From a virus: a stretch of DNA of 28,133 nucleotides. The stretch is from the IMG/VR virus record IMGVR_UViG_3300005722_000006, positions 1 through 28,133 of that record. One strand, 5' to 3'. The first letter of the stretch is position 1; the number at the start of each line of letters is the position of its first letter. Under the pieces are notes generated by a model. The model made no database searches. It saw only the letters and a program-made list of their open reading frames with translations, and was not told where the DNA came from. A program made the position numbers and the translations under genes. Below, one piece after another: positions 42 to 26,255 of the stretch.

Positions 42-50
42 GGTAAAAAA
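42..50. other. attL core (GGTAAAAAA)
   Basis: GGTAAAAAA here is repeated at 26187-26195, at the other end of the prophage. Bases 1-41 would then be host DNA that originally lay downstream of tRNA-Cys. Joining the right copy to the sequence after this copy puts a TGA (51-53) in frame immediately after the integrase codons GGT-AAA-AAA, which is independent support for the crossover. Serine integrases exchange at a 2-bp core, so the exact point inside the repeat is not determined. Confidence 0.72.
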
Positions 51-70
51 TGACCGGCTTATTTGCCGGC
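45..70 (-). terminator. Intrinsic terminator of the leftward regulator gene
   Basis: On the minus strand GCCGG-C-AAATAA-GCCGG forms a 5-bp GC-rich stem with a 6-base loop, followed by TCA and then six T residues (the complement of the A run 45-50). The TAA stop codon of the regulator gene lies in the loop. The T run coincides with the attachment core. No T run follows on the plus strand, so it should work in the leftward direction only. Confidence 0.75.
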
Positions 71-601
71 TTCAGCCTGTTTGATAAACTCTTTTGTGAA
101 AGGGTGTGTTAGGAAGTCTTTGAGCGCATCTGACATTTTGTCCTGGAGGGCTTTCTTTTTCATGTTATCTTCAAGTGAATGGACAATGATGATGTTTTTC
201 CCATTGTGGTCTTTGGTAGTTTCAAGTACTCCAACATCTCTAAGTTCATCAGCTGCTTTTAGCACCATTTTCAGTAGTTCAACGTCTTTTTTACAGACGA
301 CTTCACCACGGTCGCCTTTTCTACTTCGTAGCACGCCCATTTTTGCGTACCTGGTGACTTGATACAAGCTGAGCACGTCTTCCATTTCTTTATGTGCAGC
401 CTGCCATCTGCTGATCCAGTCAGATTCTGATATTGTACCCAGTGGGTGAAGCGCATCACGTGCAGCAATAAATGCATCCCACGTGTCTTTTTTGCCTTGA
501 AATGACATACCTGAAATTTTTTCGAGTTTTTTAGTAATAGCCCCTTTTGAGATGGCGTCGATTTTGGTTATGACCGTGTTTGAGTGCGGATATCGGAACA
601 T
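59..601 (-). CDS. Putative MerR/HTH-like phage regulator (repressor position)
   Basis: This 180-residue protein is not recognised as a whole family. Around residues 80-115 the pattern YQVTRYAKMGVLRSRKG, then GEVVCKKDVELLK, resembles a MerR or excisionase-type winged helix (recognition helix, wing, then a DVELL helix), so DNA binding is plausible. It is the only leftward gene of the prophage and sits divergent from the early operon across a region full of repeated half-sites. In the circular phage it lies next to the integrase. These are the features of a lysogeny repressor or a lysis-lysogeny switch protein, but that role is inferred from position. It starts at ATG 601-599 with no Shine-Dalgarno, and its stop lies in the loop of its own terminator. 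It could instead be an excisionase-like or anti-repressor protein. Confidence 0.6.
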   Translation of the reverse strand: MFRYPHSNTVITKIDAISKGAITKKLEKISGMSFQGKKDTWDAFIAARDALHPLGTISESDWISRWQAAHKEMEDVLSLYQVTRYAKMGVLRSRKGDRGEVVCKKDVELLKMVLKAADELRDVGVLETTKDHNGKNIIIVHSLEDNMKKKALQDKMSDALKDFLTHPFTKEFIKQAEAGK

Positions 602-620
602 AAGTTGAAAAGTGAGGAAT

Positions 621-650
621 AGTCAAGTATGTATTTTTTTTTGACTAGTC
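621..650. promoter_or_regulatory. Operator-like half-site pair near regulator start
   Basis: AGTCAAGTA (621-629) and, inverted, TTTGACTAGTC (640-650) flank an A/T run 20-50 bases upstream of the regulator ATG. The shared hexamer AGTCAA/TTGACT is the same as in the larger inverted repeat at 688-714. The minus-strand word GACTAGTCAAA recurs at 24668-24678 before the integrase. Binding here could autoregulate the leftward gene. No convincing -10/-35 pair for that gene was found; a TATAAT on the minus strand (681-676) lacks a good -35. Confidence 0.5.
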
Positions 651-687
651 TGTTGGGTATTTATCTGATAATAAAATTATATAAAAA

Positions 688-1172: not shown

Positions 1173-2249
1173 ATGATCCAACTAGACCCTCGCATCACAT
1201 TCATTCCTGGATTCATAGACTCAGATCTGTGGATGCTAACCAAACTAGCTGCGCACTACGCCAAGTATGGCAGAGCCTTCCCCAAAATTGAAACCCTGCA
1301 AAAAATGACAGGTTACGGACGTAATAAGGTTATCAATGTAATCAGCCACCTGGTTGAGCTTGGCTTGGTTGATCGCAAGCACAGATACCGCAGATCAGGT
1401 GGGAATACCTCCAACGAATATAAAATAACCACACGCATGATTGGATATTTGGTACCCATGGAAGGTCACGAATTTGGCACAACTAATGGAAGTTCCACGG
1501 AGTTTGAAAATCAAACTGCGCAAGATGATGTGGTTGAAGCTACACCAGACCACCAAAATGAGCAGCCTCAAGAGGTGCCTCAACGAAAGAATCAGGAAAA
1601 TCACGGTGTCCCAAAAATAAACTCCGCGGGGTTTGAAAATCAAACTGTATATATAGATAATTCTATATCTCTTACTACTACTAATAAAAAAGATGTGCGC
1701 AAAGCTACAAAAAAACTCTTGACGAATACATCCGAGCCATATGCCAGAAGGATTACCACATGTGGAGTTACTTCAGATTTGTTTGATTTATTGCTTGACG
1801 AGGTTGAGCAAAAAAACCCTGGGATTACAGACCCTGCTAGACTGGCATCACTATCTTGCAGATTTGCTTTCCATTTCATGAGTAGAATCCGTAATGAGAG
1901 GGTTCAACTAAAAAATCAGGAGTATGCCAACCAACTCGCCCAGCAACGCATCCAAGACTACCACACCAAAAAAAATGATAACATCGCCAAAATTGGGCAA
2001 AGTAAGTCAAAAACTGGATACTCCAAGCCTGAGCCGCTACATGTGATTGACGCTGGTGAATACTGGCTACGGTCCGAATTTGAGGCAGAGATTGAGGGGT
2101 GTAATGCTGAGGGGATTGTACATCGAATTGTACAACCAAGCCTGAGCAGAGAGAGGATTTGGGATGAGGCGGAGCCGCGAGCCTCTGGGATTCCATCTGA
2201 GCTGCTAAAGCCTATCACTACCCAAGCACTCTCACAATCAAATCATTAA
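1173..2249 (+). CDS. Winged-helix replication initiator (lambda O-like organisation)
   Basis: A 358-residue protein. Residues about 10-90 form a winged helix-turn-helix like those of phage and plasmid replication initiators: a helix with LWMLTKLAAHYAKYG, then FPKIETLQKMTGYGRNKV, VISHLVELGLVDRKHR and a basic wing ending in NEYKIT. A polar, Gln/Asn-rich linker (about 100-165) follows, then a helical C-terminal half. The linker DNA contains two near-identical 25-bp palindromic repeats and an AT-rich tract, so the gene may contain the replication origin, as lambda O does. There is no helicase or primase gene in the prophage, so the protein would have to recruit host replication proteins. It could alternatively be a transcription regulator, but the internal repeats favour replication. 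Confidence 0.6.
   Translation: MIQLDPRITFIPGFIDSDLWMLTKLAAHYAKYGRAFPKIETLQKMTGYGRNKVINVISHLVELGLVDRKHRYRRSGGNTSNEYKITTRMIGYLVPMEGHEFGTTNGSSTEFENQTAQDDVVEATPDHQNEQPQEVPQRKNQENHGVPKINSAGFENQTVYIDNSISLTTTNKKDVRKATKKLLTNTSEPYARRITTCGVTSDLFDLLLDEVEQKNPGITDPARLASLSCRFAFHFMSRIRNERVQLKNQEYANQLAQQRIQDYHTKKNDNIAKIGQSKSKTGYSKPEPLHVIDAGEYWLRSEFEAEIEGCNAEGIVHRIVQPSLSRERIWDEAEPRASGIPSELLKPITTQALSQSNH
1494..1705 (+). other. Candidate phage replication origin inside the initiator gene
   Basis: Two 25-bp direct repeats, 1494-1518 and 1623-1647, match at 23 of 25 bases. Each contains the palindrome GTTTGA-AAA-TCAAAC (1502-1516 and 1631-1645). The second is followed by an AT-rich stretch (1648-1705) with TATATATAG and runs of A/T, a plausible duplex-unwinding element. 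Iterons plus an AT-rich region within the initiator gene is the lambda ori plan. Only two copies were found, so this is suggestive rather than proven. Confidence 0.45.
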
Positions 2250-2262
2250 CCCCTAACATTTT

Positions 2263-2502
2263 ATGCTCTCACCAAAAGAATTTTTTTATGAATACCGAAC
2301 TGAATTCACGATCGCCAGGCTGATTGCCGTACTGTACGTTGCAATATCAGCTGGTGCGGTTATTGGAGCTGCCACAGACCTTCCACCTTCTTGGGTTGGG
2401 TTTTTGGCTGTTTTCTTTCCGATATTCTCACTGTTTGTGGTCACTATAATCACGATGGTTGGTTGTATTTTTCGAGATATTATCAATGGTACATTTTTCT
2501 AA
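2263..2502 (+). CDS. Small membrane protein with two transmembrane helices
   Basis: A 79-residue protein of unknown function. Two hydrophobic segments are clear: residues about 18-38 (ARLIAVLYVAISAGAVIGAA) and 44-70 (VGFLAVFFPIFSLFVVTI). A short acidic-basic N-terminus precedes them. The start at 2263 follows the initiator gene's stop by 13 bases, with no Shine-Dalgarno. As an early-operon membrane protein it might act in superinfection exclusion or host envelope modification, or serve as an additional holin. Nothing in the sequence decides between these. Confidence 0.6.
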   Translation: MLSPKEFFYEYRTEFTIARLIAVLYVAISAGAVIGAATDLPPSWVGFLAVFFPIFSLFVVTIITMVGCIFRDIINGTFF

Positions 2503-2507
2503 TTCTT

Positions 2508-2717
2508 ATGCCTAATTTTATTTCAGTCCCATGCGACGCACGCACAGATAAACTCTACATTAATCCTGATACAGTCGTCTCATTCAAGGCGTGCGAGCCT
2601 GATACTTATGGCTCATATTGGGTGATAGTTGTTGATTTTATTGCTCGCGATTCTGTCATGTACAAGTTTAATAGAGAATCCGACTGGCAGGAAGTTATCA
2701 ATAATTTACTGAAATAA
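2508..2717 (+). CDS. Hypothetical small early protein
   Basis: A 69-residue soluble protein of unknown function, with beta-rich character (LYINPDTVVSFKACEPD, then YWVIVVDFIARDSV) and a C-terminal DWQEVINNLL helix. It looks like a small single-domain fold. The ATG at 2508 is chosen because it follows the previous stop by 5 bases, as elsewhere in this operon. The upstream in-frame extension would overlap the membrane-protein gene and has no good start. Confidence 0.6.
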   Translation: MPNFISVPCDARTDKLYINPDTVVSFKACEPDTYGSYWVIVVDFIARDSVMYKFNRESDWQEVINNLLK

Positions 2718-2726
2718 CCCAACTAT

Positions 2727-3032
2727 ATGCCCCATGCAACCATCACTACAGACAACTCAATACTTTTTCATGCCACATTTTTACCAGGAACTTTGTCTAA
2801 TCATATATCGCTACGTAAAATTACAAATGCTTTTGAACAATTTGTACATCAATCTATAGAAAAAAACATACAATCACAATGTCACGCTTTAGTCCAAAAA
2901 CTAGATATAGAAAATGATGAAATCCTATTTCTTATCAAGTCAAAATACTTTCAAGAAAACCCTGGTGTATCAGAGCTGATGAAAAACAGTATCAACCAAG
3001 CAGCAGGTACTTTTATTGGAATCCATCAATGA
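2727..3032 (+). CDS. Hypothetical early protein
   Basis: A 101-residue protein of unknown function. The N-terminal part is beta-like (ATITTDNSILFHATFLPG). The rest is largely helical (LRKITNAFEQFVHQSIEKNI and further helices to the end). There is no signal peptide or membrane segment. It starts 9 bases after the preceding gene and ends 3 bases before the next start, so it is part of the same early transcription unit. Confidence 0.55.
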   Translation: MPHATITTDNSILFHATFLPGTLSNHISLRKITNAFEQFVHQSIEKNIQSQCHALVQKLDIENDEILFLIKSKYFQENPGVSELMKNSINQAAGTFIGIHQ

Positions 3033-3035
3033 CAT

Positions 3036-3179
3036 ATGAACACATTACATTATTCAACGCTTCATCCTATTGAAATACTTATGATTGGATGGGTTGTTTT
3101 TAGTATTCTAGTGATGCTGGCGGCAGGGATTGTTTTTATAATCCAGGTCCAGAGTTTTTGGAAAGGTAATGATAAATAG
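3036..3179 (+). CDS. Very small single-pass membrane protein
   Basis: A 47-residue reading frame beginning MNTLHYSTLHPIEI. One strong hydrophobic helix runs from about residue 14 to 36 (MIGWVVFSILVMLAAG, then IVFII), followed by a short polar tail ending in WKGNDK. It fills exactly the gap between two larger genes, 3 bases after one stop and 3 bases before the next start, which is good evidence that it is translated. The function is unknown. Confidence 0.55.
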   Translation: MNTLHYSTLHPIEILMIGWVVFSILVMLAAGIVFIIQVQSFWKGNDK

Positions 3180-3182
3180 CTT

Positions 3183-3455
3183 ATGACTGAGAAATATCAA
3201 TTATCAAGAGAGTATTTAACACATGAAGAAATGGAAATTTTGGAAATTACCGAATCGTTAATGAAAAAATACAAGGCAATAGGGTATCAGCATCCTAATG
3301 ATCGCCTGCAAATTATAAAAGCAGCTCATATTATTCAAGATTTAATAATGCAGAGAATTGCGCGAAAAGCTGAACCTAACGTTTTCCCAGTTAAAAAGAT
3401 ACACCCTATGGGAAATCCACACATAACAAAATACGAAGATGATCTGATCGAATAA
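3183..3455 (+). CDS. Hypothetical helical early protein
   Basis: A 90-residue protein of unknown function. Residues about 12-65 are predicted helical, with an acidic first helix (THEEMEILEITESLMKKY) and a second helix (LQIIKAAHIIQDLIMQRIAR). The C-terminus is extended and Pro-rich, ending in an acidic EDDLIE. It starts three bases after the previous stop and sits one base before the next start, within the early operon. No DNA-binding motif is visible. Confidence 0.55.
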   Translation: MTEKYQLSREYLTHEEMEILEITESLMKKYKAIGYQHPNDRLQIIKAAHIIQDLIMQRIARKAEPNVFPVKKIHPMGNPHITKYEDDLIE

Positions 3456-3456
3456 T

Positions 3457-3612
3457 ATGACCCAAATCCTAATCCGCACCATCCTATTCATCACCACACC
3501 AATCTGGATACCTCCATTTTTTGTATTTCTACTAATAAAAACCTGGCAAAAACACCAGGAAGTCAAACAGCTGAATAAGAAGAAAGAAATTCTCAAAACC
3601 TCTATTTTATGA
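3457..3612 (+). CDS. Very small membrane-anchored protein
   Basis: A 51-residue reading frame beginning MTQILIRTILFITT. It has one hydrophobic segment (residues about 4-27, rich in Ile, Phe and Pro) and a strongly basic cytoplasmic tail (KTWQKHQEVKQLNKKKEIL). Its TGA stop overlaps the ATG of the methyltransferase gene (ATGA at 3609-3612), a coupling seen at several junctions here, which supports it as a gene. The function is unknown. Confidence 0.5.
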   Translation: MTQILIRTILFITTPIWIPPFFVFLLIKTWQKHQEVKQLNKKKEILKTSIL

Positions 3613-4961
3613 AGAAAATCAGTCAACTTACCCCTAATCCCCAAAACCCTCGGCTTATTTCAAAATCTGCTTTGAATGGTCTTCGCGAATCCCTCAAAAA
3701 GTTTGGAGATTTATCAGGGGTTGTATTCAACAAAACCACTGGTCAGCTAGTTGGTGGTCATCAGCGTGTAAAAATTTTCAGCGAAATTGACCCCAAAATT
3801 ATCATGACTTCGGAGACTGACGGCTGGTTTGAGTACGAGGGTCACAAGTTCCCATATCGTGAGGTTGAATGGAGTGAATCCAAGGAAGCCCAAGCGAACT
3901 TAACTGCCAACAATCCTGAAATTCAGGGTGCGTGGGATTTGGAAAAACTTCCTGAAATTGTAGCCACTGCACAGACTGAGGAAGGGTTTGATTCTCTTCA
4001 ACTGGGTTCTATAGCAGATATTGCCAACCCACCTGATACTGACTTGAATGCTGATGAAGTACCTGAGGTTGACCCTCCAGCTAAACCAGTCACTGCACAG
4101 GGAGATGTGTATGAGATAACGGTGGATAATACAACCCACCGCCTGATGTGTGGGGATTCTACCAGTCAAGCATCCGTGGATATTTTGATGGACGGCAAAA
4201 AAGCAGACTTGCTGCACACTGATCCGCCGTACATGGTGGATTACCACAGCAAAGAAGGAAATTCTTACTCCAAGGGTAAATACAAAGGTGAGACGATATT
4301 CAACGATAACTTGACCCATGAGGATGCACTGGAATTTTATGACAAAGTCGCCGCCTGCGCGTATGCTGCAACCAAGCAAAACGCCGCATTTTTTTGGTGG
4401 TTGGCAACCAGTAAGTATCCACTGAATGAGTCCGCCTTGCGCAAAAATGGCTGGCTGGTAAATCAGATGATTATTTGGGTGAAGGAGTCTTTTGTGTTTT
4501 CTATGGGGCAGATGTTTCATCGTGCGTATGAACCGTGCTTGGTGGGATGGAAAAAAGGTAAAAGACCATATACCAACCCCAAGCTGACTAATTTGCAAGA
4601 CGTTTTCAGCCTAAAATATGATGAGGTTGCCAGAACTATGGACGTGTGGTTTGAACGCCGTGATGCGGTACAAACCTATGTTCACCCCACCCAAAAACCA
4701 GTCAACATCCCAGCTAGGGCAATCGTGCGGTGCAGCAAACGTGGCGAAAGAGTCCTTGACCTTTTTGGCGGAAGTGGCTCAACACTACTTGCTTGCATCC
4801 AGCTTGGACGTATTGGATACTTGATGGAGCTTGACCCAAAGTACTGCGATGCCATTATCGGTCGTGTGATTTTATACGCACAATCAAAAAATTCGGACAT
4901 ATCAATCACCAAAAATGGGCAACCCGTGAATGTTGAAGAGTATGAGTCAGAAAATCAATAA
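3609..4961 (+). CDS. ParB-like domain / beta-class DNA methyltransferase fusion
   Basis: A 450-residue two-domain protein. Residues 1-140 are a ParB/sulfiredoxin-type domain: NPQNPR near the start and the nucleotide-binding GGHQR motif at 49-53. Residues about 160-420 are an S-adenosylmethionine-dependent DNA methyltransferase with catalytic DPPY at 205-208 and SAM-binding FGGSGS at 386-391. Motif IV lying before motif I is the beta-class order, and DPPY favours adenine-N6 methylation, although cytosine-N4 is possible. Such fusions are common next to phage terminase genes. The likely role is to methylate phage DNA against host restriction or to mark DNA for packaging. The end overlaps the small terminase gene by 32 bases. 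Confidence 0.9.
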   Translation: MKKISQLTPNPQNPRLISKSALNGLRESLKKFGDLSGVVFNKTTGQLVGGHQRVKIFSEIDPKIIMTSETDGWFEYEGHKFPYREVEWSESKEAQANLTANNPEIQGAWDLEKLPEIVATAQTEEGFDSLQLGSIADIANPPDTDLNADEVPEVDPPAKPVTAQGDVYEITVDNTTHRLMCGDSTSQASVDILMDGKKADLLHTDPPYMVDYHSKEGNSYSKGKYKGETIFNDNLTHEDALEFYDKVAACAYAATKQNAAFFWWLATSKYPLNESALRKNGWLVNQMIIWVKESFVFSMGQMFHRAYEPCLVGWKKGKRPYTNPKLTNLQDVFSLKYDEVARTMDVWFERRDAVQTYVHPTQKPVNIPARAIVRCSKRGERVLDLFGGSGSTLLACIQLGRIGYLMELDPKYCDAIIGRVILYAQSKNSDISITKNGQPVNVEEYESENQ

Positions 4962-5754
4962 ACAGCAGCTTGAAGCTTTATGTTCTTACGATATAGAATA
5001 TGCAGACATCGCCGCCGTGCTGCTAGTCAGTCAATCCCAGCTGGATGATTTTATTGCCCAGGAATACGGACTGACACCATCGCAATTTGTCAAAAAACAA
5101 AGCGCCCTGGGTCGAGCAAAAGCTGCTGAAAACATTCACAATCTAGCAAAATCTTCCCCATCTGCGGCAAAATACCTTCATTCACAGTCAAAAAACGGAC
5201 AAAATATGACTATTAACGGACAAAATCAGTCAGATATTTCACAATTTCGCTCAAAAATTCTGCAAAAAATCACAAAAGAGTTGCAAAATGATGAGCGATT
5301 TCAACAGTTATCACCCAAAAAGCAGAGTTTCATCAGTAATTATCTGACGTCCAAAAATGCGACAAAATCTGCAGAGGCTGCTGGCTACTCGGTGAAGTCT
5401 GCATATTCTCAAGGTTCCAGATTGTTGAAGAATGATGAGGTTGCGGCGTTGATTAAATTTTGTACTGAACGTGAGGCAGAGTTGTTATCAGATGATAAAT
5501 CACAGATATTGGCTGATTTAGATGAGATAATTGCCAACTGCAAAAGAGAGATAACGCTCGAAATGGTTGAATCGAATGTAGTGAACCGCCGAAATCCTGC
5601 TAATACGATGATTTCTGCCCTCGCGTTAAAAGCAAAGATTCAGGGAGTAGAGGCTCCAAATAAGCACTCATTTACGAGTCCAGACGGAACTGAGGAGCGC
5701 AAACCTATAATGTATTTACCAAAAAATGGACGAGACACAGACACCCCAGCTTAG
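4930..5754 (+). CDS. terS: Terminase small subunit (Terminase_2-like)
   Basis: A 274-residue protein. Residues 128-175 carry the Terminase_2 signature: LSPKKQSFISNYL, then NATKSAEAAGYSVKSAYSQG and SRLLKNDEV, a helix-turn-helix that recognises the packaging site. The N-terminal part (about 10-85) looks like a second DNA-binding module of the small-terminase kind (YADIAAVLLVSQSQLDDFI, then GRAKAAENI and SPSAAKYLHS). The two are joined by a Gln/Asn-rich linker, which makes the protein longer than usual. Starts at 4930 and 4942 are both possible. It overlaps the methyltransferase upstream and the large terminase downstream, as expected for a packaging operon. Confidence 0.82.
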   Translation: MLKSMSQKINKQQLEALCSYDIEYADIAAVLLVSQSQLDDFIAQEYGLTPSQFVKKQSALGRAKAAENIHNLAKSSPSAAKYLHSQSKNGQNMTINGQNQSDISQFRSKILQKITKELQNDERFQQLSPKKQSFISNYLTSKNATKSAEAAGYSVKSAYSQGSRLLKNDEVAALIKFCTEREAELLSDDKSQILADLDEIIANCKREITLEMVESNVVNRRNPANTMISALALKAKIQGVEAPNKHSFTSPDGTEERKPIMYLPKNGRDTDTPA

Positions 5755-7315
5755 ACCCCAGGAAGGATTTCAAGAGCAGTTCCTTTCTTCATCCGCTGAT
5801 ATTGTTATTGGCGGCTCTGGCGCTGGTGTCGGTAAAAGTTTTGCGCTGTTGATGGAAGCTGCGCGGCATTCGCACCGCAAGGGCTTTGCTGGGATTGTTT
5901 TTCGCAGAACATACAAAGAAATCAACGCTGGAGGTGGACTTTTCGACACCTCTCAAACGATATACCCAGCACTAAACGGCAAAGCAACTCAAAACAAATG
6001 GGTATTTCCATCCGGTGCAAAAATTGAATTCAGCCATCTGCAACACGAAAAAGATGTGTACAGTCACCAAGGTGTACAATACGCCTTTATAGGGTTTGAT
6101 GAGTTGACTCACTTTTCACGCAAGATGGTATTTTATTTGCTGACTCGCAACCGTTCAACTTGTGGTATTCGTCCGTATATGCGCGCCACATGTAACCCAG
6201 ACCCTGACAGCTGGGTGGCAGATTTTATTGAGTGGTATATTGACCAGCAAGAGGATTCACCAAATTACGGACTGCCGATTCCTGATCGCGTTGGAAAGCT
6301 ACGCTACTTTACAATCGATGACGGTAAAATAGTCTGGGGCAACTCTCTCCAGGAAGTTCACAATAAGGCTTCACATATTTTTGACGATCCTGCACTGGCT
6401 GACGTGCCGCTGTCCGAGCGTATTCTTTCGTTTACGTTTATCCCAGGCAAAATCCGTGACAATAAGATATTGATGAAAAAAGATCCTGGGTATCTGGCAA
6501 AGCTAACCAGTCAAGACTCCACCACTCGAGCCCAGCTTTTGGACGGAAACTGGAAAATATCCAGTGATGGGCTTTCGCTGTGTGACTATAAAGCAGTCAA
6601 CCGCATTTTTACTAATTTCACAGGTGCAGATAATGCAAATGACTTCCGCATTACTGTGGATGTTGCTGGGTTTGGGAAAGACTTGGCAGTGGTCAGCGTA
6701 TTCAACGGCTGGGACTGGCGCGCAATTCATATTCTGACAAAGTGTACTCCTGATCAGCTTGACCAGCTGATACTTCAGCAGCGGCAAAAATATGGAGTAT
6801 CTGAAGGGGACGTACTACCAGATGGTGACGGAATGGGATGGGGGCTTTCTAATAATCAGTACGTGTTTTTTCATGGTGGGGCTTCGGCACTAGATGATAG
6901 TCCAAATATGGCTGATGTTTCATCGTTTGAAATTGCTCAAAAGTACTCCGAACAAAAAAAGTTTGTGGATTATAAAAACCTGAGAACTCAGTGCTGGTAT
7001 TACTTGGCTGAACAGATTATTAACAAAGACAAGCTGTGCATGCGACTTGAAGAGATGATTATTACCGTGGATGGAGTGGAAACGGATGAAATTCCTGTCA
7101 AAAACAAAGCCATTGACATATGTCGCCTCATTAAAGAGGAACTGAGAGCCATTAAACGCCGCAACCCTGATAAAGAAACCAAAAAGCAAATTTCGACAAA
7201 GGAAGAGCTGAAGGAAGTACTTGGCAGATCGCCGGACATCTCGGACACACTTATGATGAATGCTTATTTTGACCTCAATCCCACCCCAGACTTTTCAGCA
7301 TTTGACGCACTCTAA
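5726..7315 (+). CDS. terL: Terminase large subunit
   Basis: A 529-residue packaging motor and nuclease. The N-terminal ATPase has a Walker A motif GGSGAGVGKS (29-38) and a Walker B with catalytic Glu, FIGFDE (121-126), followed by the coupling segment around THFSRKMVFYLLTRNR. The C-terminal RNase H-like nuclease begins at FRITVDVAG, with the metal-binding Asp at 312. Further acidic residues lie in the DGDG segment near 366-368 and in the ISDTLMM region near 513. It cleaves the concatemer and translocates DNA into the procapsid through the portal. Its 5' end overlaps the small-subunit gene by 29 bases. Confidence 0.95.
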   Translation: MDETQTPQLRPQEGFQEQFLSSSADIVIGGSGAGVGKSFALLMEAARHSHRKGFAGIVFRRTYKEINAGGGLFDTSQTIYPALNGKATQNKWVFPSGAKIEFSHLQHEKDVYSHQGVQYAFIGFDELTHFSRKMVFYLLTRNRSTCGIRPYMRATCNPDPDSWVADFIEWYIDQQEDSPNYGLPIPDRVGKLRYFTIDDGKIVWGNSLQEVHNKASHIFDDPALADVPLSERILSFTFIPGKIRDNKILMKKDPGYLAKLTSQDSTTRAQLLDGNWKISSDGLSLCDYKAVNRIFTNFTGADNANDFRITVDVAGFGKDLAVVSVFNGWDWRAIHILTKCTPDQLDQLILQQRQKYGVSEGDVLPDGDGMGWGLSNNQYVFFHGGASALDDSPNMADVSSFEIAQKYSEQKKFVDYKNLRTQCWYYLAEQIINKDKLCMRLEEMIITVDGVETDEIPVKNKAIDICRLIKEELRAIKRRNPDKETKKQISTKEELKEVLGRSPDISDTLMMNAYFDLNPTPDFSAFDAL

Positions 7316-17913: not shown

Positions 17914-20073
17914 ATGAATGAAACGCTAAGTATCGCAATCAATGGCTACGACAACGCAAGTGGCACGATGAAGCAGGTCATGGCGAGTACTGAGCAGTTG
18001 GCGAAAGAAACTGGGATGCTGCGTGGTGCCTATGGAAAGTTAAACAAAATGATGCTGGATGTTGCCAAAGTTGGCATGCTTGGACTTGTTGGTGTGGTTG
18101 GGGCTGTCGGCGTAGCCTCCTTCAACTTGAGTGCGGATATACAAGATAGTCAGGGTCAAATACAAGCCGAACTTGGGGTTACTGCTGATGAAGCCTATCA
18201 TCTAAGTGGTGTAGTTGAGGAAGTTTGGGGTGACAATTTTGGCGAGAACGTGGGTGATGCCACTGATGTGATTATTGCTTCACGCCAGCAGATCCAGGGT
18301 CTTGCTGATGAAGACCTGCCTGCAGTTGCCAGGGGTACGATTGCGATTCGTGATGCGTTTGAGCAGGATGTAAATGCGACTACTCAAGCAGCTGGGGTTC
18401 TGATGGAGGAGTTTGGGGTGTCATCTGAGCATGCAATGAACATGCTGGTAAATGGTTTTCAGGTTGGGCTTGATAACTCTGGTGACTTTTTGGACACGAT
18501 CAACGAATACGGCGGAATTTTTGCTGAAGGTGGCGCTAGTGCTGATCAGTTTTTTAACATTTTAGCCAGCGGTCAGCAGAATGGCGTGCTGGGTACGGAC
18601 AAAATTGCGGATTCTTTCAAGGAACTAAATGCTATTATTCTTGACGGTTCTGATGCACGTGCTGATGCCTTGGATGCAATTGGACTGAATAGTGCTGATT
18701 TCCTTTCCAACCTTTCCACTGGTAAAATGTCAACGATGGAAGCCTTTGACGAAATTACTGGTGCGTTATCTGGTACTGAGGATGAGGCAGTCCGTAATCA
18801 GGCAGCTGTGGCTTTGCTTGGGACAATGGTGGAAGACATGGGGTTTGATTCAATCGCTGCAATTGATTCTATGAGTGACAAGTGGGGTGATAACAGCGGA
18901 GCGGTTGAGGATTTACACGCTCAGTATCAGGACTTTTGGTCTATGGCAGATGGTCTTTGGAGGCAGCTACTGCTTGAAGTCAAACCATACACTGATGAGC
19001 TTTTAGCCCTAGCAAATGAAAATATGCCGATGCTAGAAAATGGTATCAGTCAGGTTTCGGATGTGATTGGAATTTCTATTGGACTGCTTCGTGATTCTGC
19101 CAATTTCTATATGGAAAACAAAAGTGCAATTGACACTCTCCTTGTCGTTGTCGGTTCCATGACAGCTGCCTGGTATCTCGCAAATACTGCAATGGCGGTT
19201 CACGCTAGTGCTACACTTTGGTGGAGTGGCGTAACCAAAGGTGCTACACTGGCACAGACTTTATTTAATGCTACTATGATGGCAAGTCCAATTGGATGGG
19301 TTACATTGTTGATTGGTGGGCTAATTGCGGCTGTTGTCTTGCTTTGGATGAATTGGGATTCTGTGACTGCCTGGATGATGGGTGCGTGGCAAGGTACGAT
19401 TGACTTCTTTGGGTGGTCATGGCAATGGCTACAAGCAAACTTTTTCAGTCTGCTGATGAATGGGTTTTTGATTTTAACTGGTCCTATCGGCTGGCTGTAT
19501 CTTACGTGGCAAAATAATTTTATGGGCATTCAGGATATTACTGGTGGAGTAATTGGTAATGTCATGGGTTTTTTTGATCGACTGGGTACAAAGGCTTTTG
19601 CAGTGAAAGACCAGGTTGTGGGTGCATTTCAGGGTCTGGGACATGGAATCAAAGGTGCTATCCGCTGGGCTTTGCAAGGTGTTGTGGACAACTTCAACGT
19701 ATTTATTCGTGGATTTAATGACATGTCTGGTGCAATTGGTGGCCCTACAATTACGCCCCTGGTTGTCCCTCAATTCGCCTCCGGTGTCCGAAACTTTGAA
19801 GGGGGTCCAGCGATTATCAACGAAGCTGGTGCGGAGGCACTAAGGGTTGGAACTACTACCTACTTACCACAGGGAACTGATGTGTATTCCGCCGCTGAAA
19901 CTCGGCAGATGCAACGAAGTGAGGATCGCAAGAGTGGTGGAAATCAACCCATAATAATCAAAATAGATGCACGTGGATCTATAATTGACGATCGTTCCCT
20001 CGCTGAATGGTTCCGCAAAATCAAGCGAATTGCTGCCCAGCAAGGGTTCAAAGTTGAAGGAATAACCGCATAA
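17914..20073 (+). CDS. Tail tape measure protein
   Basis: A 719-residue protein. The N-terminal half has the features of the phage minor tail/tape measure family: ATDVIIASRQQIQGL, FEQDVNATTQAAGVLMEEFG, MNMLVNGFQVGLD, and GTDKIADSFKELN with a following regular helix pattern. Hydrophobic helices occur at about 54-74 and in 405-475 (WVTLLIGGLIAAVVLLWM and neighbours). These are expected for membrane insertion during DNA entry. The C-terminus has FASGVRNFEGGPAIINEAGAEA. Length sets tail length; at the commonly used 0.15 nm per residue this implies a tail near 110 nm. Confidence 0.92.
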   Translation: MNETLSIAINGYDNASGTMKQVMASTEQLAKETGMLRGAYGKLNKMMLDVAKVGMLGLVGVVGAVGVASFNLSADIQDSQGQIQAELGVTADEAYHLSGVVEEVWGDNFGENVGDATDVIIASRQQIQGLADEDLPAVARGTIAIRDAFEQDVNATTQAAGVLMEEFGVSSEHAMNMLVNGFQVGLDNSGDFLDTINEYGGIFAEGGASADQFFNILASGQQNGVLGTDKIADSFKELNAIILDGSDARADALDAIGLNSADFLSNLSTGKMSTMEAFDEITGALSGTEDEAVRNQAAVALLGTMVEDMGFDSIAAIDSMSDKWGDNSGAVEDLHAQYQDFWSMADGLWRQLLLEVKPYTDELLALANENMPMLENGISQVSDVIGISIGLLRDSANFYMENKSAIDTLLVVVGSMTAAWYLANTAMAVHASATLWWSGVTKGATLAQTLFNATMMASPIGWVTLLIGGLIAAVVLLWMNWDSVTAWMMGAWQGTIDFFGWSWQWLQANFFSLLMNGFLILTGPIGWLYLTWQNNFMGIQDITGGVIGNVMGFFDRLGTKAFAVKDQVVGAFQGLGHGIKGAIRWALQGVVDNFNVFIRGFNDMSGAIGGPTITPLVVPQFASGVRNFEGGPAIINEAGAEALRVGTTTYLPQGTDVYSAAETRQMQRSEDRKSGGNQPIIIKIDARGSIIDDRSLAEWFRKIKRIAAQQGFKVEGITA

Positions 20074-20074
20074 T

Positions 20075-20449
20075 ATGCCTCTTGCACAACTCAAACTTGG
20101 AATATCTGAAGCGACCCTGGTGGTGATGCCGTCGCCGAATTTGCCTGATGGTATGCCACGCGGAATTTCTATCAAACGAATTGAGGAAGAGTCGGTAGAT
20201 AATCAGCGGTCTATCACATATCTCGGTGCCGAAAAAGAGGACATTACCCTAGAGTTCACGAAGTTACGTGAGGCTGACTTTGCCCTGATCCGTCAATACT
20301 GCAACACTGGTGAGTATTATTGCGTGATAGAAAGTTCATTGCGTCAGTATTTTACTGGCTGGGTTGAGGTGCGCCTGGATTCAATAACCGAAGACATGCA
20401 CACCCCAGATTTTCGCAGAGATATGACTGTAATTTTAAGACAATTATAA
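20075..20449 (+). CDS. Small tail protein (distal tail or tip)
   Basis: A 124-residue beta-rich protein located between the tape measure and the large tail-tip protein, where distal-tail or tip-adaptor proteins lie. Segments such as SIKRIEEESVDNQRSITYLG, DITLEFTKLREADFALIRQY and YFTGWVEVRLDSI alternate strands and a helix. It starts 1 base after the tape measure stop and ends 1 base before the next ATG, so the three genes are closely coupled. The family is not recognised. Confidence 0.6.
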   Translation: MPLAQLKLGISEATLVVMPSPNLPDGMPRGISIKRIEEESVDNQRSITYLGAEKEDITLEFTKLREADFALIRQYCNTGEYYCVIESSLRQYFTGWVEVRLDSITEDMHTPDFRRDMTVILRQL

Positions 20450-20450
20450 T

Positions 20451-23400
20451 ATGTCCTCATCAATCAATTCGTACGCCAAACGCGTCAAGCATATGCTCCC
20501 AGAAGTGGGTATTGCAACTGATTATGTGGACGAAAAGGTGTATGCGGCGATGAAGGGGAATCTATACCGTCGGTTAGTCACGGTAGATAACACTGGCAAA
20601 ACTGCAAAGTCAAACTATTTGGTACGGATAGTACTCGATACCGCAACGATCCACGACGAAAATAAGTGTAGCTATACGTTTGCTGATCTTCGCGTGTACG
20701 ATTCTGATGGGGTCACGCCACTGAATTTTTATGTAGATGCTCCAAACTTGCAGTGGACACAGGTGTACGTCCGCATTCCAGACCTCCCTGCAACCTCAAA
20801 AATAATATATTTGGAATATGGCAATCCAGGACTGGTGAATACCAGCTCGCCCTCATCGACCCTTGGTTCCGTCTTTGCTGACCTTACTGCTTGGTTTAGC
20901 TGCACAGAAACGAATCATGCCCATGTCGGTGCTAAAACAGCTACTGGAGATTTTCCAAACTGGCGAAATAAAGCCATTAAAACTAACTACGCTGTGCAGT
21001 TTGAGGGGAACACTGGCGGTCAAAATTTTTACTCTGCGAATAGGTGGGGAGGGTTGCAAGCTCGTCAGTATGTGCGGTTGACAACACCTCGTCGAGTTAT
21101 ACTTGCTTCAACACCATATTCTGTATTCATTGCGGAGGAGCGGTCGCTGAACGATGCGAAATGGCTGGTTGCGGACTCAGGTGCGGCTACTACCAATAAT
21201 CGACTGGCAATTGGCTATAGTTCTACCACGAATTTTCGGTGGAGTCAACAGGGTAACGACTTGAATTATACGGTGCCAGCTTTTGCCATAGATCAAAAAA
21301 GATTGTGGAGTTGTGTGCTTGATTCATCTGGTCATACGCTGAGACTGAACGGGTCGCAGGTCGCCTCCAACACAAACACCACCGCGATTGCCACCGCAAA
21401 TCGGCTCAGAATTGGCACATTAGACGCATCCCTTGGTTCAGATGCAACAAATTATATAGGAGATATCATTGTAATTGCACGTGAGATTACCTCTGCCGAA
21501 CGTAGTGCCATTGAAGAATATATGAATGTGAAGCACCAGATCTATGATACGCACGACTTCCCATCAATTACAGTAGGCGGCGAAACTTCAATCCCTGATT
21601 CGGCTGAGTTCACGTACAAAAGCTATGCTCCGATTGGGACTTGGTCAACCACGGTCAAACTGTCCGATTCCAAGTTAATCCACGGTATGGCACCAGCCGC
21701 TGGTGATGCTTCGATTATTCCATTCCTTGGCAAGCAGATTGCCATGGGTACAGATGCAGAGAGCTGGGATGCTTCAACCCAATCGAATCAAAAAATGATA
21801 CTTCGTCACTGCCGCGAGATTGAAGTGACTGATGCTGGTACGGTTGATACCGTCTCAATAGACCGAACCGTAGGCGAAGTAAATCGTGGGCGACTTGACC
21901 GATACGAGCTGGTGAACGATGCCGAATCGACCGTGTATGAGATAACTCCTGATGACTTTATTGCCTTTGATTTTCTGGTTCAGGACAAAGACAATTTTGA
22001 ATTTTCCACTTCATACCTGAGATTCTTGAAGGATTCATCGAATTATTATCAGGTGGACTTGGTCAAAAATGTCAATGCAGTGACGGCAAATGTGGCAAGT
22101 CTGGTTATGATTCCTATATCATCATTCATTCAGACTGGCACACTAATTTGGGCTGATGTTGTGGATATGCAAGTGCGGCCACGGACTTCAACAGGGACTA
22201 CTCAAACAGTCAATTACGAGAATTTCCGCGTGGTCAAGAATATAGAATCGGATGAGTTTGCCTACAATTTACCAGTATGCACTGGAAGCTGGGTCAGTGA
22301 GGATAACCGCTCAACATGGTTTCGTCAAATCAGTTCAGTCGGTCGTCTCAGAGGGCAGCAAAATGCAAATCGCGCTGTGACCGTAGATTTTGACGATTAC
22401 TTGACGATTGTCCGCTCGATGAAGTTTCGTGATTTTGATTCATTCCCTGATCGGTTTGCAATATATTATGCAATTGGTGACTTATCTGATTACTCACAGT
22501 GGTACAATTACTACCTGCGCAAAGTCTTGGGATTCTTCCTTCCGTCATCGATGATTGATGTTGATTTGACACCGCTGGCTGGGGATTCGTCGGTTTTTAC
22601 CACTTCTAGATTTTATTTTTTGATTCAGCAGCAAGATACAGTTGGTGAGATTATCGACGCACTGCTTGCTCCGATGCTTGGATACCTCACGTACGATCCA
22701 ACTTTGGGCAAGTTCGTGGCACGTTCTGGATACAAAACGTGGGATGGTGAGAATATCCCAACGCCATATGACTTGCCGACTAGCAAACTAATAAGTTATT
22801 CCACTGACTCTGGGTCAGACGACTTGGTGTATAATTCTATCGAGATGTCCAGATTGGAGGATGAAGTTGGTCCCTCTAGCCTGAATACCAAGACTGTTGC
22901 TTGGTTGATTGATGCGCAATATCAAATTCCAGCTGAATCAACGATTACTGCCTTTATCGAAACAAACATATCAGGAAGTGAAAAAATATATCTATTGGAT
23001 AACGCATTTTGGCATGGGTACAATGTTGGAACTAATGCAGATTCAACATCATACAATAATACAGGTGTCAGTATAGATTCAGTCAATATCGTGGATGATA
23101 AAATTGCGGTGACAGTCACTAACACGAATTTTTCTGAACGGTACTTGCGTCAAATCCATATTCAAGCTGACTCACACCGTCTGTTTCGCCGTGCCTTTGA
23201 GAGTGAATACGACAATCGCGCTATTGACTTTTTATTGCAAGATGAAGCATCAATCCAAAAACACGGTCGCAAACCCTACATATTCAACCAACTCTACTCC
23301 TTCAACGATTCAACGTATTGCCAGTTATTTGATGCGTTCTTGAAGCAATTCGCCAAGCCATCACGCGTGCATAGTCTGAAGCTGATGAAGGATCCCAACA

Positions 23401-23630
23401 TTCGTTTTGGTGCGGTTGTCCGATTCCGTAGCAGCCGTGGTCGGATTGTGACCGGGTTCGTCATTGAATGCACTGAGTATGCTAATGAATCCACCTTTGG
23501 ATTGGATGTGAAGTTGGTTGAGATATTTATTGATGAATCTGCTTTGATTGGCAACTTCCTGACGTTTACTGATGGAACCCCTATGCAGCGTGCCGCAGGA
23601 GTAGGCTTTTTACTCCGAGCTGGAGATTAA
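20451..23630 (+). CDS. Large tail-tip protein with DUF2341 and LamG-like domains
   Basis: A 1059-residue protein. Residues about 35-130 match the DUF2341 pattern: LYRRLVTVDNTGK, ADLRVYDSDGVTPLNFYVD, and RIPDLPATSKIIYLEYGNP. Residues about 145-365 look like a concanavalin/LamG jelly roll (WRNKAIKTNYAVQFEGN, LRLNGSQVASN, YIGDIIVIAREITSAERSAIEEY). The C-terminal half, from about 480, is tail-hub-like, with TVGEIIDALLAPMLGYLTYD and a final RVHSLKLMKDPNIRFGAVVRFRS region. The most likely role is the baseplate hub with an adhesin module for binding the host surface. DUF2341-LamG pairs are common in surface proteins. Confidence 0.75.
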   Translation: MSSSINSYAKRVKHMLPEVGIATDYVDEKVYAAMKGNLYRRLVTVDNTGKTAKSNYLVRIVLDTATIHDENKCSYTFADLRVYDSDGVTPLNFYVDAPNLQWTQVYVRIPDLPATSKIIYLEYGNPGLVNTSSPSSTLGSVFADLTAWFSCTETNHAHVGAKTATGDFPNWRNKAIKTNYAVQFEGNTGGQNFYSANRWGGLQARQYVRLTTPRRVILASTPYSVFIAEERSLNDAKWLVADSGAATTNNRLAIGYSSTTNFRWSQQGNDLNYTVPAFAIDQKRLWSCVLDSSGHTLRLNGSQVASNTNTTAIATANRLRIGTLDASLGSDATNYIGDIIVIAREITSAERSAIEEYMNVKHQIYDTHDFPSITVGGETSIPDSAEFTYKSYAPIGTWSTTVKLSDSKLIHGMAPAAGDASIIPFLGKQIAMGTDAESWDASTQSNQKMILRHCREIEVTDAGTVDTVSIDRTVGEVNRGRLDRYELVNDAESTVYEITPDDFIAFDFLVQDKDNFEFSTSYLRFLKDSSNYYQVDLVKNVNAVTANVASLVMIPISSFIQTGTLIWADVVDMQVRPRTSTGTTQTVNYENFRVVKNIESDEFAYNLPVCTGSWVSEDNRSTWFRQISSVGRLRGQQNANRAVTVDFDDYLTIVRSMKFRDFDSFPDRFAIYYAIGDLSDYSQWYNYYLRKVLGFFLPSSMIDVDLTPLAGDSSVFTTSRFYFLIQQQDTVGEIIDALLAPMLGYLTYDPTLGKFVARSGYKTWDGENIPTPYDLPTSKLISYSTDSGSDDLVYNSIEMSRLEDEVGPSSLNTKTVAWLIDAQYQIPAESTITAFIETNISGSEKIYLLDNAFWHGYNVGTNADSTSYNNTGVSIDSVNIVDDKIAVTVTNTNFSERYLRQIHIQADSHRLFRRAFESEYDNRAIDFLLQDEASIQKHGRKPYIFNQLYSFNDSTYCQLFDAFLKQFAKPSRVHSLKLMKDPNIRFGAVVRFRSSRGRIVTGFVIECTEYANESTFGLDVKLVEIFIDESALIGNFLTFTDGTPMQRAAGVGFLLRAGD

Positions 23631-23658
23631 CTTTTGTACTTTAATTTTTGAAAAAAAT

Positions 23659-24681
23659 ATGTCTAATATAGCTGTTCCTAATACCCCAAACAAGCCAATA
23701 CCAAGTGACAATGACCTGATTTATATCGCTGATGCTCTGGGTGGCGGTGATTGGGGTGACAAGCACGTAACCATCGCACAACTTAAATCTATCTTGAGTT
23801 TATCATTAACATCGGTTGACGGTGTTTTTAGTGATTATTCAATTTTACCTGTCATCACTTCAGGCACATTATCAGTTGCGATTAAAAAAATAAATGGTTC
23901 TGATAATTTAGACAGTCTTTTGCCTATGACTGGATACATAGGACAGAATAAGATAACAATCGATACCGCCAAGTCTATAACGTTATCTGCTGGTACTAAC
24001 TGGCTGAATCTGAATAACTCCCACTTTCGCAGTACTGCTAATAATCCATTTGACGTAGATTTATTTGTCTACCTGGTCTACAATACCGCATCTGCTGGTG
24101 CTGATACTGTTGATATTGTAATAAGTAGAATACCATATGCACTTGCCTTTAGTGATTTTGACTCGTCATCAACTAGCAATTATGGCAGATATACAAACGC
24201 TACTGTTACGCCTAATTCTGGTGATTTAGTTAGAGTCATAGGCAGGATTACGATACAGATGAACTCATCAAGCCAGTTTGTTGCTCCTATGAACTACAAA
24301 ACGGTCTCCGCTCCTATAAAAGAGACCAACTTTTCCAATTGGACGCCTGCAGTTACAGGAGAAGGCAGTTCAACTTTTGATGGCACTGGTGGTCGTGATG
24401 GGAGGTATAAGATTATTGGCGACCTTGTGAATTACACTATCTCCGCGTTTGGGATTGTTGGTGTGGCAAGCACAGCTAGCTTAACTGCAACACTACCATT
24501 CACCACTTCTGCAGGTGATTTTGGTGAAGGTGCTAATGTTAGTTTGGCTGCTGGTATTCGCTCAGGTGTTACTGTATTGTCAGGTGCTGCTGGTAATGTT
24601 AATGTGCGTGATCCTGTTGACGCATTTACGGTGGGATTTTGTGGATTCAGGATTGGGGGTGCCTATCGACTAGTCAAATAA
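23659..24681 (+). CDS. Tail fibre / receptor-binding protein
   Basis: A 340-residue protein after the tail tip. The first 55 residues (NTPNKPIPSDNDLIYIAD, then GDKHVTIAQLKSIL) resemble the virion-anchoring start of short tail fibres. The rest is Ser/Thr/Gly/Asn-rich, beta-structured sequence typical of fibre trunks and heads (FSNWTPAVTGEGSSTFDGT, then GRYKIIGDLVNYTIS). It probably determines host range. It starts 28 bases after the tip gene; the last codons overlap an operator-like word before the integrase. Confidence 0.65.
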   Translation: MSNIAVPNTPNKPIPSDNDLIYIADALGGGDWGDKHVTIAQLKSILSLSLTSVDGVFSDYSILPVITSGTLSVAIKKINGSDNLDSLLPMTGYIGQNKITIDTAKSITLSAGTNWLNLNNSHFRSTANNPFDVDLFVYLVYNTASAGADTVDIVISRIPYALAFSDFDSSSTSNYGRYTNATVTPNSGDLVRVIGRITIQMNSSSQFVAPMNYKTVSAPIKETNFSNWTPAVTGEGSSTFDGTGGRDGRYKIIGDLVNYTISAFGIVGVASTASLTATLPFTTSAGDFGEGANVSLAAGIRSGVTVLSGAAGNVNVRDPVDAFTVGFCGFRIGGAYRLVK

Positions 24682-24690
24682 CCTTTGACA
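24668..24690. promoter_or_regulatory. Operator-like site before the integrase
   Basis: GACTAGTCAAA (24668-24678) is an exact 11-base match to the minus strand of 640-650 in the immunity region. It is followed by an inverted partner TTTGACA (24684-24690), whose TTGACA could be a -35 hexamer, though no good -10 lies at the right distance. A regulator bound here would control the integrase independently of the tail operon. The first 11 bases also encode the end of the fibre gene. Confidence 0.45.
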
Positions 24691-24719
24691 AAAACCCAAA
24701 AGTATTGAACCGTCTCTGC

Positions 24720-26255
24720 ATGCCAAAAAATGCAGTAATTTACGCACGCGTATCCACCGATATGCAAAATGAAGGATTGAAGACACAGTTGTCGGTGTGT
24801 CGCGCGTATGCCTCATCTAATGATTTCCAAGTACTTCAAGAATTTACAGATGAAGACATTTCGGGGACGAAAGCAAATCGTAAAGGTCTGATTGAGCTAA
24901 AACAATTCTTATCAATAAATCCAGGTACAACTCTGATTGTATATCATCCAGATCGTCTAGCGCGAGACATGCAGGTGTGGCTTGATCTGACTAGGTTTTG
25001 TCAAGAATCGTTGACTGAAATTTACAGTCCGATGGCAAATGGTCGTGTTGACTTTAGCTCGGCGCAAGGGAAGCTTCAGTCAGGAATTGGTATGATATTT
25101 GCACAGTTCGAACGTGATAGGATTTTGGAAAGGTCTAGGGCAGGGATGTTGCGTCTAATGCAAGAGGGGTATTGGGTGTTTGGCTACCCTAAAGGGTATG
25201 GTAAGCGTAAAATCGGAAAGCAAAAATTCATGATTCCAAACCAGGATGCACCAATAATAAAGCACGCCCTGGAAAGTATCGCATCTGGATCAATGAATGT
25301 AGCTGAAGCCTATCAGTATGTCGTGACCAAAGGGGTCAAAATCGGCAAGTCCGCGTTTTACGAAGGAATAAAAAATCCACTATATGCTGGGCATTATGAG
25401 TACTCAAAGTGGGATATTCCATTTATCAAAGCGAAACACGAACCATTGATTACTTTGCAGCAACATAAGAAAATCCTCAAAAACACCAGGGGCAAGAATG
25501 ATGAACGCTCAGCGAAACGGAATGCATCATTGATTATGCGTGGACGAGTCCGCTGTGGCTGCTGTGGCAAAAAGATGACTGCTGCCTTCTCCAAGGGTCG
25601 TCACAATTATTATGGGTACTACTTTTGCCAAAACAAAGAATGCCCTGAGTATCGTATCAATCACAAGCAATCAGACTTTGAATTTGACTTCATCACATTC
25701 TTATCAAGAATAAAGCTAACACCATCTCAGATTGAACTAGTCACCACTCTGTGGAACGATGAACTAAACCGCCGATTTGGATCGCATGAGTCACGTGTGA
25801 TGCAACTGCGGTCACAGATAGCTTCACTACGCGCAACAATCACTAAGGCGACCACCAGAGCAGTCAACGCAGACTCAGATGAAGTCGCGCAAATGTACGA
25901 ACACCAGGTAGTAGATTTGAAGGGTCAACTAACCCTCACCGAAAACGAATTAGAAGTCGAAAAATTCAAAAATGATGAGGGTGCCTACATCAACTATAGA
26001 ACCGCTTTTACAGAATTGATAACAAAACTGAAAAATCCTGGTACTTACTGGGATAACGCGAATATTGCCAAGCAAAATCAGTTGTTTGATTTGCTGTTTT
26101 CTGGTGAAATTGAGTACACTTCAAAAAACAACTATAGAACCGCCTCCTCGTCCTGTGTTTATCAGCAAATCTGCCGATTGAAAGGTGGTAAAAAAACTTT
26201 GGAGGCAACGACCGGAATTGAACCGGTGTACAAGGTTTTGCAGACCTCTGCCTAA
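24720..26255 (+). CDS. int: Large serine integrase (site-specific recombinase)
   Basis: A 511-residue large serine recombinase. The resolvase-type catalytic domain begins AVIYARVSTDMQ with nucleophile Ser12, followed by GLKTQLSVCRAYA, LIVYHPDRLARDMQ and GMIFAQFERDRILERSRAG. The recombinase domain follows (about 165-270, GYPKGYGKRKIG to NPLYAGHYEYSKW), then a zinc ribbon (CGCCGK, then CQNKEC) and a coiled coil near 390-435. It integrates and, with a directionality factor, excises the prophage. The ATG at 24720 is chosen because the catalytic domain starts there. The last 20 or so codons come from host DNA including the antisense tRNA. In the free phage the frame should end at residue 492 with TGA, the natural C-terminus. 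Confidence 0.93.
   Translation: MPKNAVIYARVSTDMQNEGLKTQLSVCRAYASSNDFQVLQEFTDEDISGTKANRKGLIELKQFLSINPGTTLIVYHPDRLARDMQVWLDLTRFCQESLTEIYSPMANGRVDFSSAQGKLQSGIGMIFAQFERDRILERSRAGMLRLMQEGYWVFGYPKGYGKRKIGKQKFMIPNQDAPIIKHALESIASGSMNVAEAYQYVVTKGVKIGKSAFYEGIKNPLYAGHYEYSKWDIPFIKAKHEPLITLQQHKKILKNTRGKNDERSAKRNASLIMRGRVRCGCCGKKMTAAFSKGRHNYYGYYFCQNKECPEYRINHKQSDFEFDFITFLSRIKLTPSQIELVTTLWNDELNRRFGSHESRVMQLRSQIASLRATITKATTRAVNADSDEVAQMYEHQVVDLKGQLTLTENELEVEKFKNDEGAYINYRTAFTELITKLKNPGTYWDNANIAKQNQLFDLLFSGEIEYTSKNNYRTASSSCVYQQICRLKGGKKTLEATTGIEPVYKVLQTSA
26187..26195. other. attR core (GGTAAAAAA)
   Basis: This is the second copy of GGTAAAAAA, followed by one extra A. It lies inside the 3' end of the integrase frame and 4 bases beyond the CCA end of tRNA-Cys. 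Phage sequence is to the left and host tRNA to the right. The integrated tRNA gene is left intact because the crossover lies in its trailer. Confidence 0.72.

What the first reader, a model, noticed from the sequence alone, without database searches (positions are those of the whole stretch)
42..26195. A 9-bp att core explains both the tRNA-Cys insertion and a conditional integrase C-terminus
GGTAAAAAA flanks the element. Rejoining the ends to rebuild attP gives the integrase reading GGT-GGT-AAA-AAA-TGA, so the free phage integrase ends at residue 492 exactly at the core. In the prophage the frame instead runs through host DNA and the antisense tRNA to residue 511, adding a tail that includes ATTGIEPV. 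The integrase thus may differ between lysogen and free phage, which could affect excision. The in-frame stop appearing at the predicted junction is independent evidence for the boundary.
Basis: partly seen in the sequence, partly recalled or inferred. Interest (0 to 1): 0.75.

Follow-up and report, generated by a model that had tools for sequence, protein, structure and literature searches.

The report
Serine integrase reading into a tRNA

Summary
The letters are as reported: GGTAAAAAA at 42-50 and 26187-26195, an integrase frame open to residue 511 inside the antisense tRNA-Cys, and TGA after residue 492 if the copies are joined. As an att core the 9-mer does not hold. A shared 9-mer arises by chance in 3% of 100-bp comparisons, a 15/16 match to the same spot lies in the portal gene, and the left copy is the U-tract of an intrinsic terminator.

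The integrase is a large serine recombinase (LSR). In homologues with recoverable attL sites the shared block begins at the tRNA 3' end (-1 to +2) and runs into the tRNA, not 5-13 nt outside it. The window's spacing from a conserved Thr to the tRNA end (58 nt) is the family mode. So the window very probably recombined inside tRNA-Cys, and its true attL is not in the window.

The conditional C-terminus idea survives and generalises. In 49 of 60 sampled patescibacterial LSRs, and 19 of 30 from Bacteroidota, the ORF runs into a convergent tRNA/tmRNA; only 1 of 91 has a stop in the 30 nt before it. The principle is published (Mx8; DsiB; rumA ICEs), but the breadth contradicts statements that serine integrases rarely use tRNA genes.

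The parts
24720..26255 (+). Large serine integrase ORF in its integrated form, 511 aa (ATG to TAA inside the antisense tRNA)
   Evidence: Pfam Resolvase E 1.5e-32 and Zn_ribbon_recom E 1.2e-5; PHROG integrase 9.1e-66; translation
26142..26199 (+). Coding phage arm (P) of the attachment site: 58 nt between the codon of conserved Thr474 and the tRNA 3' end
   Evidence: The same 58-nt spacing is the mode in 24 homologues (11 of 24 exactly 58; 18 of 24 within 58-61)
26200..26222 (+). Inferred att overlap block: antisense of the CCA/acceptor/T-arm of tRNA-Cys; extent inferred from the blocks of homologues
   Evidence: Homologous attL/attR pairs; no attL copy in the window
26200..26273 (-). tRNA-Cys(gca), the integration target, convergent with the integrase
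   Evidence: ARAGORN
26187..26195 (+).
42..50 (+).
53..70 (-). Intrinsic-terminator stem-loop following ORF 59-601
   Evidence: scan and folding, z -3.5; an outer stem pairs 39-43 with 75-79 across the proposed junction
59..601 (-). ORF of 180 aa at the left end; no Pfam match, weak PHROG match of unknown function
1173..24681 (+). Phage body: replication initiator (O-like), methyltransferase, terminase, portal/Mu F-like protein, tape measure and further structural genes
26409..28130 (+). Host flank: a 229-aa protein without a Pfam match and a tRNA-dihydrouridine synthase whose best matches are mostly patescibacterial

Best explanation
The window is a prophage in a patescibacterial (CPR) chromosome, integrated by its own large serine integrase at the 3' end of tRNA-Cys. 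Shown: the integrase gene ends convergent with the tRNA and its frame stays open into the antisense tRNA; homologues have the same layout with many different tRNAs and tmRNA; and where attL can be found, the shared block starts at the tRNA 3' end and extends into it. Inferred: attP lies across the end of the integrase gene, and its phage arm is the last 58 nt of coding sequence before the tRNA. Crossover happens inside the first ~20 nt of the antisense tRNA (from 26200 on). The last residues of the integrase, from about 494, are therefore encoded by the tRNA in the lysogen and by the other phage arm in the circle. The tail is probably mostly neutral, because it is predicted disordered and is conserved neither in sequence, length nor frame. 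The true attL lies beyond the left end of the record, and GGTAAAAAA at 42-50 is the T-tract of a terminator.
For: LSR domains and catalytic and zinc residues conserved in 26 sequences. 40 of 43 best-hit and 49 of 60 sampled patescibacterial LSR ORFs overlap a convergent tRNA/tmRNA, with 18 tRNA isotypes plus tmRNA. Stops in the own frame in the last 30 nt before the tRNA: 1 of 91, against 89 of 182 in the other frames. Shared att blocks starting at -1 to +2 relative to the tRNA end in seven elements: G263, G126, G302b, G018, G013, G352 (14-22 bp) and, weakly, G121 (10 bp). Long matches start within -4 to +3 of the tRNA end 7 times, against 8 times over the remaining ~143 offsets. Window spacing of 58 nt equals the family mode. 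Reconstructed circles give other tails. Residues 481-511 have pLDDT below 50. No tRNA-Cys 3' copy at the left end; terminator at 53-70.
Against: No empty site, circle read or close relative of this particular phage was found, so the window's own junctions are inferred from homologues only 22-27% identical. Shared blocks could be found in only about seven of 35 long contexts; the others may have very short overlaps, as serine integrases allow, so a core outside the tRNA cannot be excluded for this one.
Confidence: 0.8

Rival explanations
1. One reading: GGTAAAAAA at 42-50 / 26187-26195 is the overlap, host DNA is 1-41 and 26196 onward, and the free-phage integrase stops at residue 492 in front of a terminator shared with the convergent ORF 59-601.
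For: Exact 9-bp direct repeat unique to these two places; TGA at the joint; a plausible terminator follows the joint; serine integrases can use short overlaps.
Against: Chance expectation of 3% per 100 x 100 bp plus a 5% stop chance, chosen after the fact; both copies are T-tracts with their own explanation; it makes the exact 58-nt family spacing to the tRNA a coincidence; no homologue with a recovered block has it outside the tRNA; it needs the record to begin just 41 bp beyond attL; an outer stem pairs bases on both sides of the joint (weak).
Confidence: 0.08
2. The state-dependent tail is a regulatory switch: the integrated form, with the tRNA-encoded tail, differs in integration or excision activity from the circular form, as reported for the tyrosine integrase of phage Mx8.
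For: The frame is kept open right up to the crossover (1 of 91 with a stop in the last 30 nt) although those residues are variable and predicted disordered. 88 of 89 frames stay open at least 9 nt into the tRNA, against 81 expected. Precedents: Mx8 and rumA ICEs (PMC4701971, PMC6070905).
Against: All three phases are used (37/29/23) and tails differ in length and sequence, so no tail is conserved. Circular tails have lengths like first random stops.
Confidence: 0.2
3. The element is a decayed or chimeric prophage remnant and the open frame into the tRNA is accidental.
For: No attL in the window; degenerate att copies exist next to homologues (G018).
Against: Uninterrupted integrase and an apparently complete set of structural genes; the same open frame recurs in 89 of 103 patescibacterial loci.
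Confidence: 0.08

Closest known systems
DsiB of Dehalococcoides ssrA genomic islands (McMurdie 2011, PMC3146451)
   Same: Serine integrase gene whose 3' end overlaps the att site at the 3' end of tmRNA; stop codon only beyond the island; authors already proposed that full function may need the circular form
   Different: Targets tmRNA, not tRNA-Cys; CcrB-like with a second small recombinase DsiA; different phylum; not a phage
Streptococcal ICEs in rumA (PMC4701971)
   Same: attR lies inside the serine integrase gene, so the excised form has another length and C-terminus
   Different: Target is a protein gene, not a tRNA
Phage Mx8 integrase IntP/IntX (PMC6070905, PMC4701971)
   Same: attP inside the integrase gene; integration swaps the C-terminus; the integrated form is reported to be less active or altered
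   Different: Tyrosine integrase; a 112-residue end is replaced by 13 residues, whereas here only a predicted-disordered tail changes
Mycobacterium AICE serine recombinases in tRNA-Leu and phage phiRSM1 in tRNA-Ser (PMC3218068)
   Same: Serine recombinase integrating into a tRNA gene
   Different: Described as rare; overlap of the integrase frame with the tRNA is not mentioned in the passages read
A118 / TP901-1 phage serine integrases
   Same: Catalytic, recombinase and zinc domain similarity
   Different: From general knowledge, these do not target tRNA genes

Membership tests
Large serine recombinase (serine integrase) | N-terminal resolvase domain with catalytic Ser and conserved Arg | tested here: met
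   PF00239 residues 5-151; S12, R10, R79, R82 invariant in 26 sequences
Large serine recombinase (serine integrase) | Zinc-ribbon domain and coiled coil in a long C-terminal part | tested here: met
   PF13408 residues 274-307; C279, C282, C303, C308 at least 90% conserved; long helices 335-438 in the model
Large serine recombinase (serine integrase) | Recombination activity on attP/attB | not testable with these tools
   Needs an assay
tDNA-targeting serine integrases whose ORF spans att (DsiB-like layout) | Integrase gene convergent with a tRNA/tmRNA and ORF open into it | tested here: met
   ORF stop 53 nt into antisense tRNA-Cys
tDNA-targeting serine integrases whose ORF spans att (DsiB-like layout) | Displaced copy of the tRNA 3' end at the far junction (attL) | tested here: inconclusive
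   No such copy within the window, but the far end is probably outside the record. Membership is claimed for the layout, not for a proven att pair.
tDNA-targeting serine integrases whose ORF spans att (DsiB-like layout) | Fixed distance of conserved C-terminal motif to the tRNA 3' end (a feature found here) | tested here: met
   58 nt, the family mode
Mx8-type switch (integrase activity changed by integration) | Different activity of the two forms | not testable with these tools
   Needs an assay
Tyrosine integrase in a tRNA gene | Phage_integrase catalytic domain | tested here: not met
   Only serine recombinase domains found

The most novel reading that the evidence does not exclude
In Patescibacteria and Bacteroidota, serine integrases commonly insert at tRNA/tmRNA 3' ends, with the crossover at the universally shared CCA end, which would let one enzyme design move between many tRNAs. 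Translation across the crossover is kept open by selection, so the integrase carries a different tail in lysogen and circle, which acts as a built-in state sensor.
Probability: 0.2. Interest if true: 0.75.

Novelty: new member of a known kind. Interest (0 to 1): 0.5.

Why it matters
It corrects a prophage boundary. It also shows that serine integrases using tRNA ends, called 'not known' (PMC4383910) or 'rare' (PMC3218068), are the usual form among patescibacterial and Bacteroidota relatives of this enzyme. Island-finding programs that accept only tyrosine integrases at tRNA genes would miss these elements, and annotated integrase tails will often be antisense tRNA. The conserved open frame across the crossover makes the question of whether the integrase tail senses the integration state testable in many systems.

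Tried and rejected
Close relatives of the integrase, the capsid-region protein and the exact tRNA-Cys sequence in IMG/VR: none; terminase relatives were distant and carried no related integrase. Host by tRNA-dihydrouridine synthase: best matches about 50% identical and mostly patescibacterial, with no empty site available. Alternative genetic code (TGA = Gly, as in SR1): rejected, because several phage genes and the host gene 26409-27098 end in TGA. Conserved circular tail: two related tRNA-Glu elements share the att block plus inner P' arm (28 of 29 bp identical) and a vaguely similar in-frame peptide (SFYN..LV..G), but the match falls off beyond the arm, so a split integrase gene with a functional second piece is not claimed. 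Conserved antisense-tRNA peptide as a functional tail: rejected, all three phases are used. IMG/VR family members as free-phage attP examples: mixed and mostly other LSR clades. Bacteroidota, meant as a negative control, turned out to show the same pattern (19 of 30); the contrasting group is the mainly non-overlapping IMG/VR set (6 of 78 classified rows), with the caveat that some of those contigs end near the integrase.
Full report
WHAT WAS CLAIMED.

CHECK OF THE LETTERS. All of that is literally in the sequence. The 9-mer occurs only at those two places. But a shared 9-mer between two 100-bp stretches of this composition occurs in 3% of simulations (15% for 200 bp), 16 of 480 interior segments of the window share one with the junction, and a stop at the first codon after a random joint has probability 0.05. 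A longer near-match to the same junction, 15 of 16 bases, sits at 9722-9737 inside the portal gene. Each copy has its own explanation. The left one is the U-tract of an intrinsic terminator (stem 70-53 on the - strand) right after ORF 59-601(-). The right one is the T-tract behind tRNA-Cys. Folding also pairs 39-43 with 75-79 across the supposed joint (weak). The record is an IMG/VR virus sequence of 28,133 bases, so an att site 41 bases from its end would itself be a coincidence.

WHAT THE INTEGRASE IS. It is a large serine recombinase: resolvase domain, zinc ribbon, long coiled coil, with the catalytic serine and the zinc cysteines conserved. It is not a tyrosine integrase, the type usually found at tRNA genes. 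The host flank carries a tRNA-dihydrouridine synthase whose best matches are mostly patescibacterial. TGA is a stop codon here.

THE FAMILY. A search of 379 patescibacterial genomes gave matches in 219. In the best-matching set 40 of 43 integrase ORFs (window included) run into a convergent tRNA or tmRNA. In 60 further hits taken from lower in the list 49 do, two stop 12 and 42 nt before one, one is cut by a contig end and eight have none within reach. In Bacteroidota, searched as a control, 19 of 30 do. In 80 IMG/VR relatives only 6 do. On a tree of 201 of these proteins the trait changes 24 times against 54.7 on average when shuffled (minimum 46). Among host genomes alone the few negatives are scattered (17 changes against 18.9), so there the negatives look like noise or decay. 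Eighteen tRNA isotypes and tmRNA serve as targets.

WHERE THE CROSSOVER IS. For elements on long contigs I looked for the second att copy upstream. Copies were found for tRNA-Glu (21, 19 and 14 bp), tRNA-Gln (22, 19 and 18 bp within the tRNA, three copies), tRNA-Asn (15 bp), tRNA-Ser (17 bp, two copies) and, weakly, tmRNA (10 bp). Each block starts at -1 to +2 relative to the tRNA 3' end and extends into the tRNA. In a scan without hand picking, 7 of 15 long matches start within -4 to +3 of the tRNA end and the other 8 are spread over about 143 offsets. The distance from the conserved threonine (Thr474 in the window) to the tRNA end is 58 nt in 11 of 24 homologues and 58-61 nt in 18 of 24; in the window it is exactly 58. 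The window's attachment point is thus most likely the tRNA 3' end at 26200, and the proposed core at 26187-26195 lies 5-13 nt outside it, inside the coding phage arm. No copy of the tRNA-Cys 3' end exists at the left end of the window (best 12 of 18 matches anywhere). I conclude that the far junction is probably not in the record.

THE CONDITIONAL C-TERMINUS. The general idea holds. Rejoining the arms of homologous elements gives a circular-form tail different from the integrated tail in every case where the integrase frame crosses the att block. In most of these the stop lies beyond the shared block, 2 to 58 codons past it, and in one case (a second attL copy of G018) it falls at the block's edge. 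G169, whose integrase stops before the tRNA, is unchanged. In 91 loci only one has an in-frame stop in the last 30 nt before the tRNA, against 89 of 182 in the other two frames, and 88 of 89 frames stay open at least 9 nt into the tRNA (81 expected for random frames). So something keeps the frame open up to the crossover. Yet all three phases occur (37/29/23), tails share no sequence, the last residues before the tRNA are variable, and residues 481-511 of the window protein are predicted disordered. The simplest reading is that attP lies on the end of the gene and the tail beyond it is largely neutral. A switch, as reported for Mx8, is possible but untested.

PRIOR KNOWLEDGE. The principle is published: Mx8 (attP inside the tyrosine integrase gene, new 3' end on integration), streptococcal ICEs in rumA (serine integrase with another C-terminus in the excised form), and Dehalococcoides DsiB (serine integrase at tmRNA, ORF running past the att site, authors suggesting full function only in the circle). 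On the target side, Islander states that serine recombinases are not known to target tRNA genes, and an actinobacterial survey calls it rare, with phiRSM1 and eight mycobacterial elements. The high frequency found here therefore looks new, but I could search only an open-access library, and later surveys may have noted it.

VERDICT. The 9-bp core and the residue-492 stop are most likely wrong. The element is a new member of a known kind, in a family that is much more widespread than the literature read here says.

Noticed in passing
window 709-933 and 930-1139: Two small ORFs in tandem, overlapping by four bases, with similar starts (MTVTEAQELF.. / MTVTEAHAIL..) and a repeated DNA start (atgacagtcactgaagcccа region): a small tandem duplication.
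   Followed up: no
L115 7730-8602: Three copies of the tRNA-Gln 3' end within 0.9 kb upstream of one serine integrase element: an array of old att sites, suggesting repeated insertion or decay at one tRNA.
   Followed up: partly
L341 (G352), repeat copies at 2226 and 14756: The displaced tRNA-Ser 3' end lacks the TGG (CCA) that the restored tRNA has, as if the element supplied an encoded CCA on integration; two attL copies suggest tandem elements.
   Followed up: no
L193 around 7600-7730: An integrase of this family is followed by about 50 nt resembling an antisense tRNA-Leu 3' half without an intact tRNA, and its stop lies inside the T-loop part; possibly a free attP whose integrase tail would not change.
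   Followed up: no
window 9020-11095: Portal-type protein fused to a Mu F-like head morphogenesis domain in one 691-aa ORF.
   Followed up: no
window 20451-23630: 1059-aa protein near the tail genes carrying a DUF2341 domain.
   Followed up: no
window 1-46: One forward frame is open from the record's first bases to TAA at 44-46, convergent with ORF 59-601 across the terminator; may be the end of a gene that continues beyond the record.
   Followed up: no
Bacteroidota loci L353-L382: The tRNA-overlapping serine integrase layout is also common in Bacteroidota (19 of 30), several with the same tRNA-Asn, tRNA-Met or tRNA-Arg targets.
   Followed up: partly
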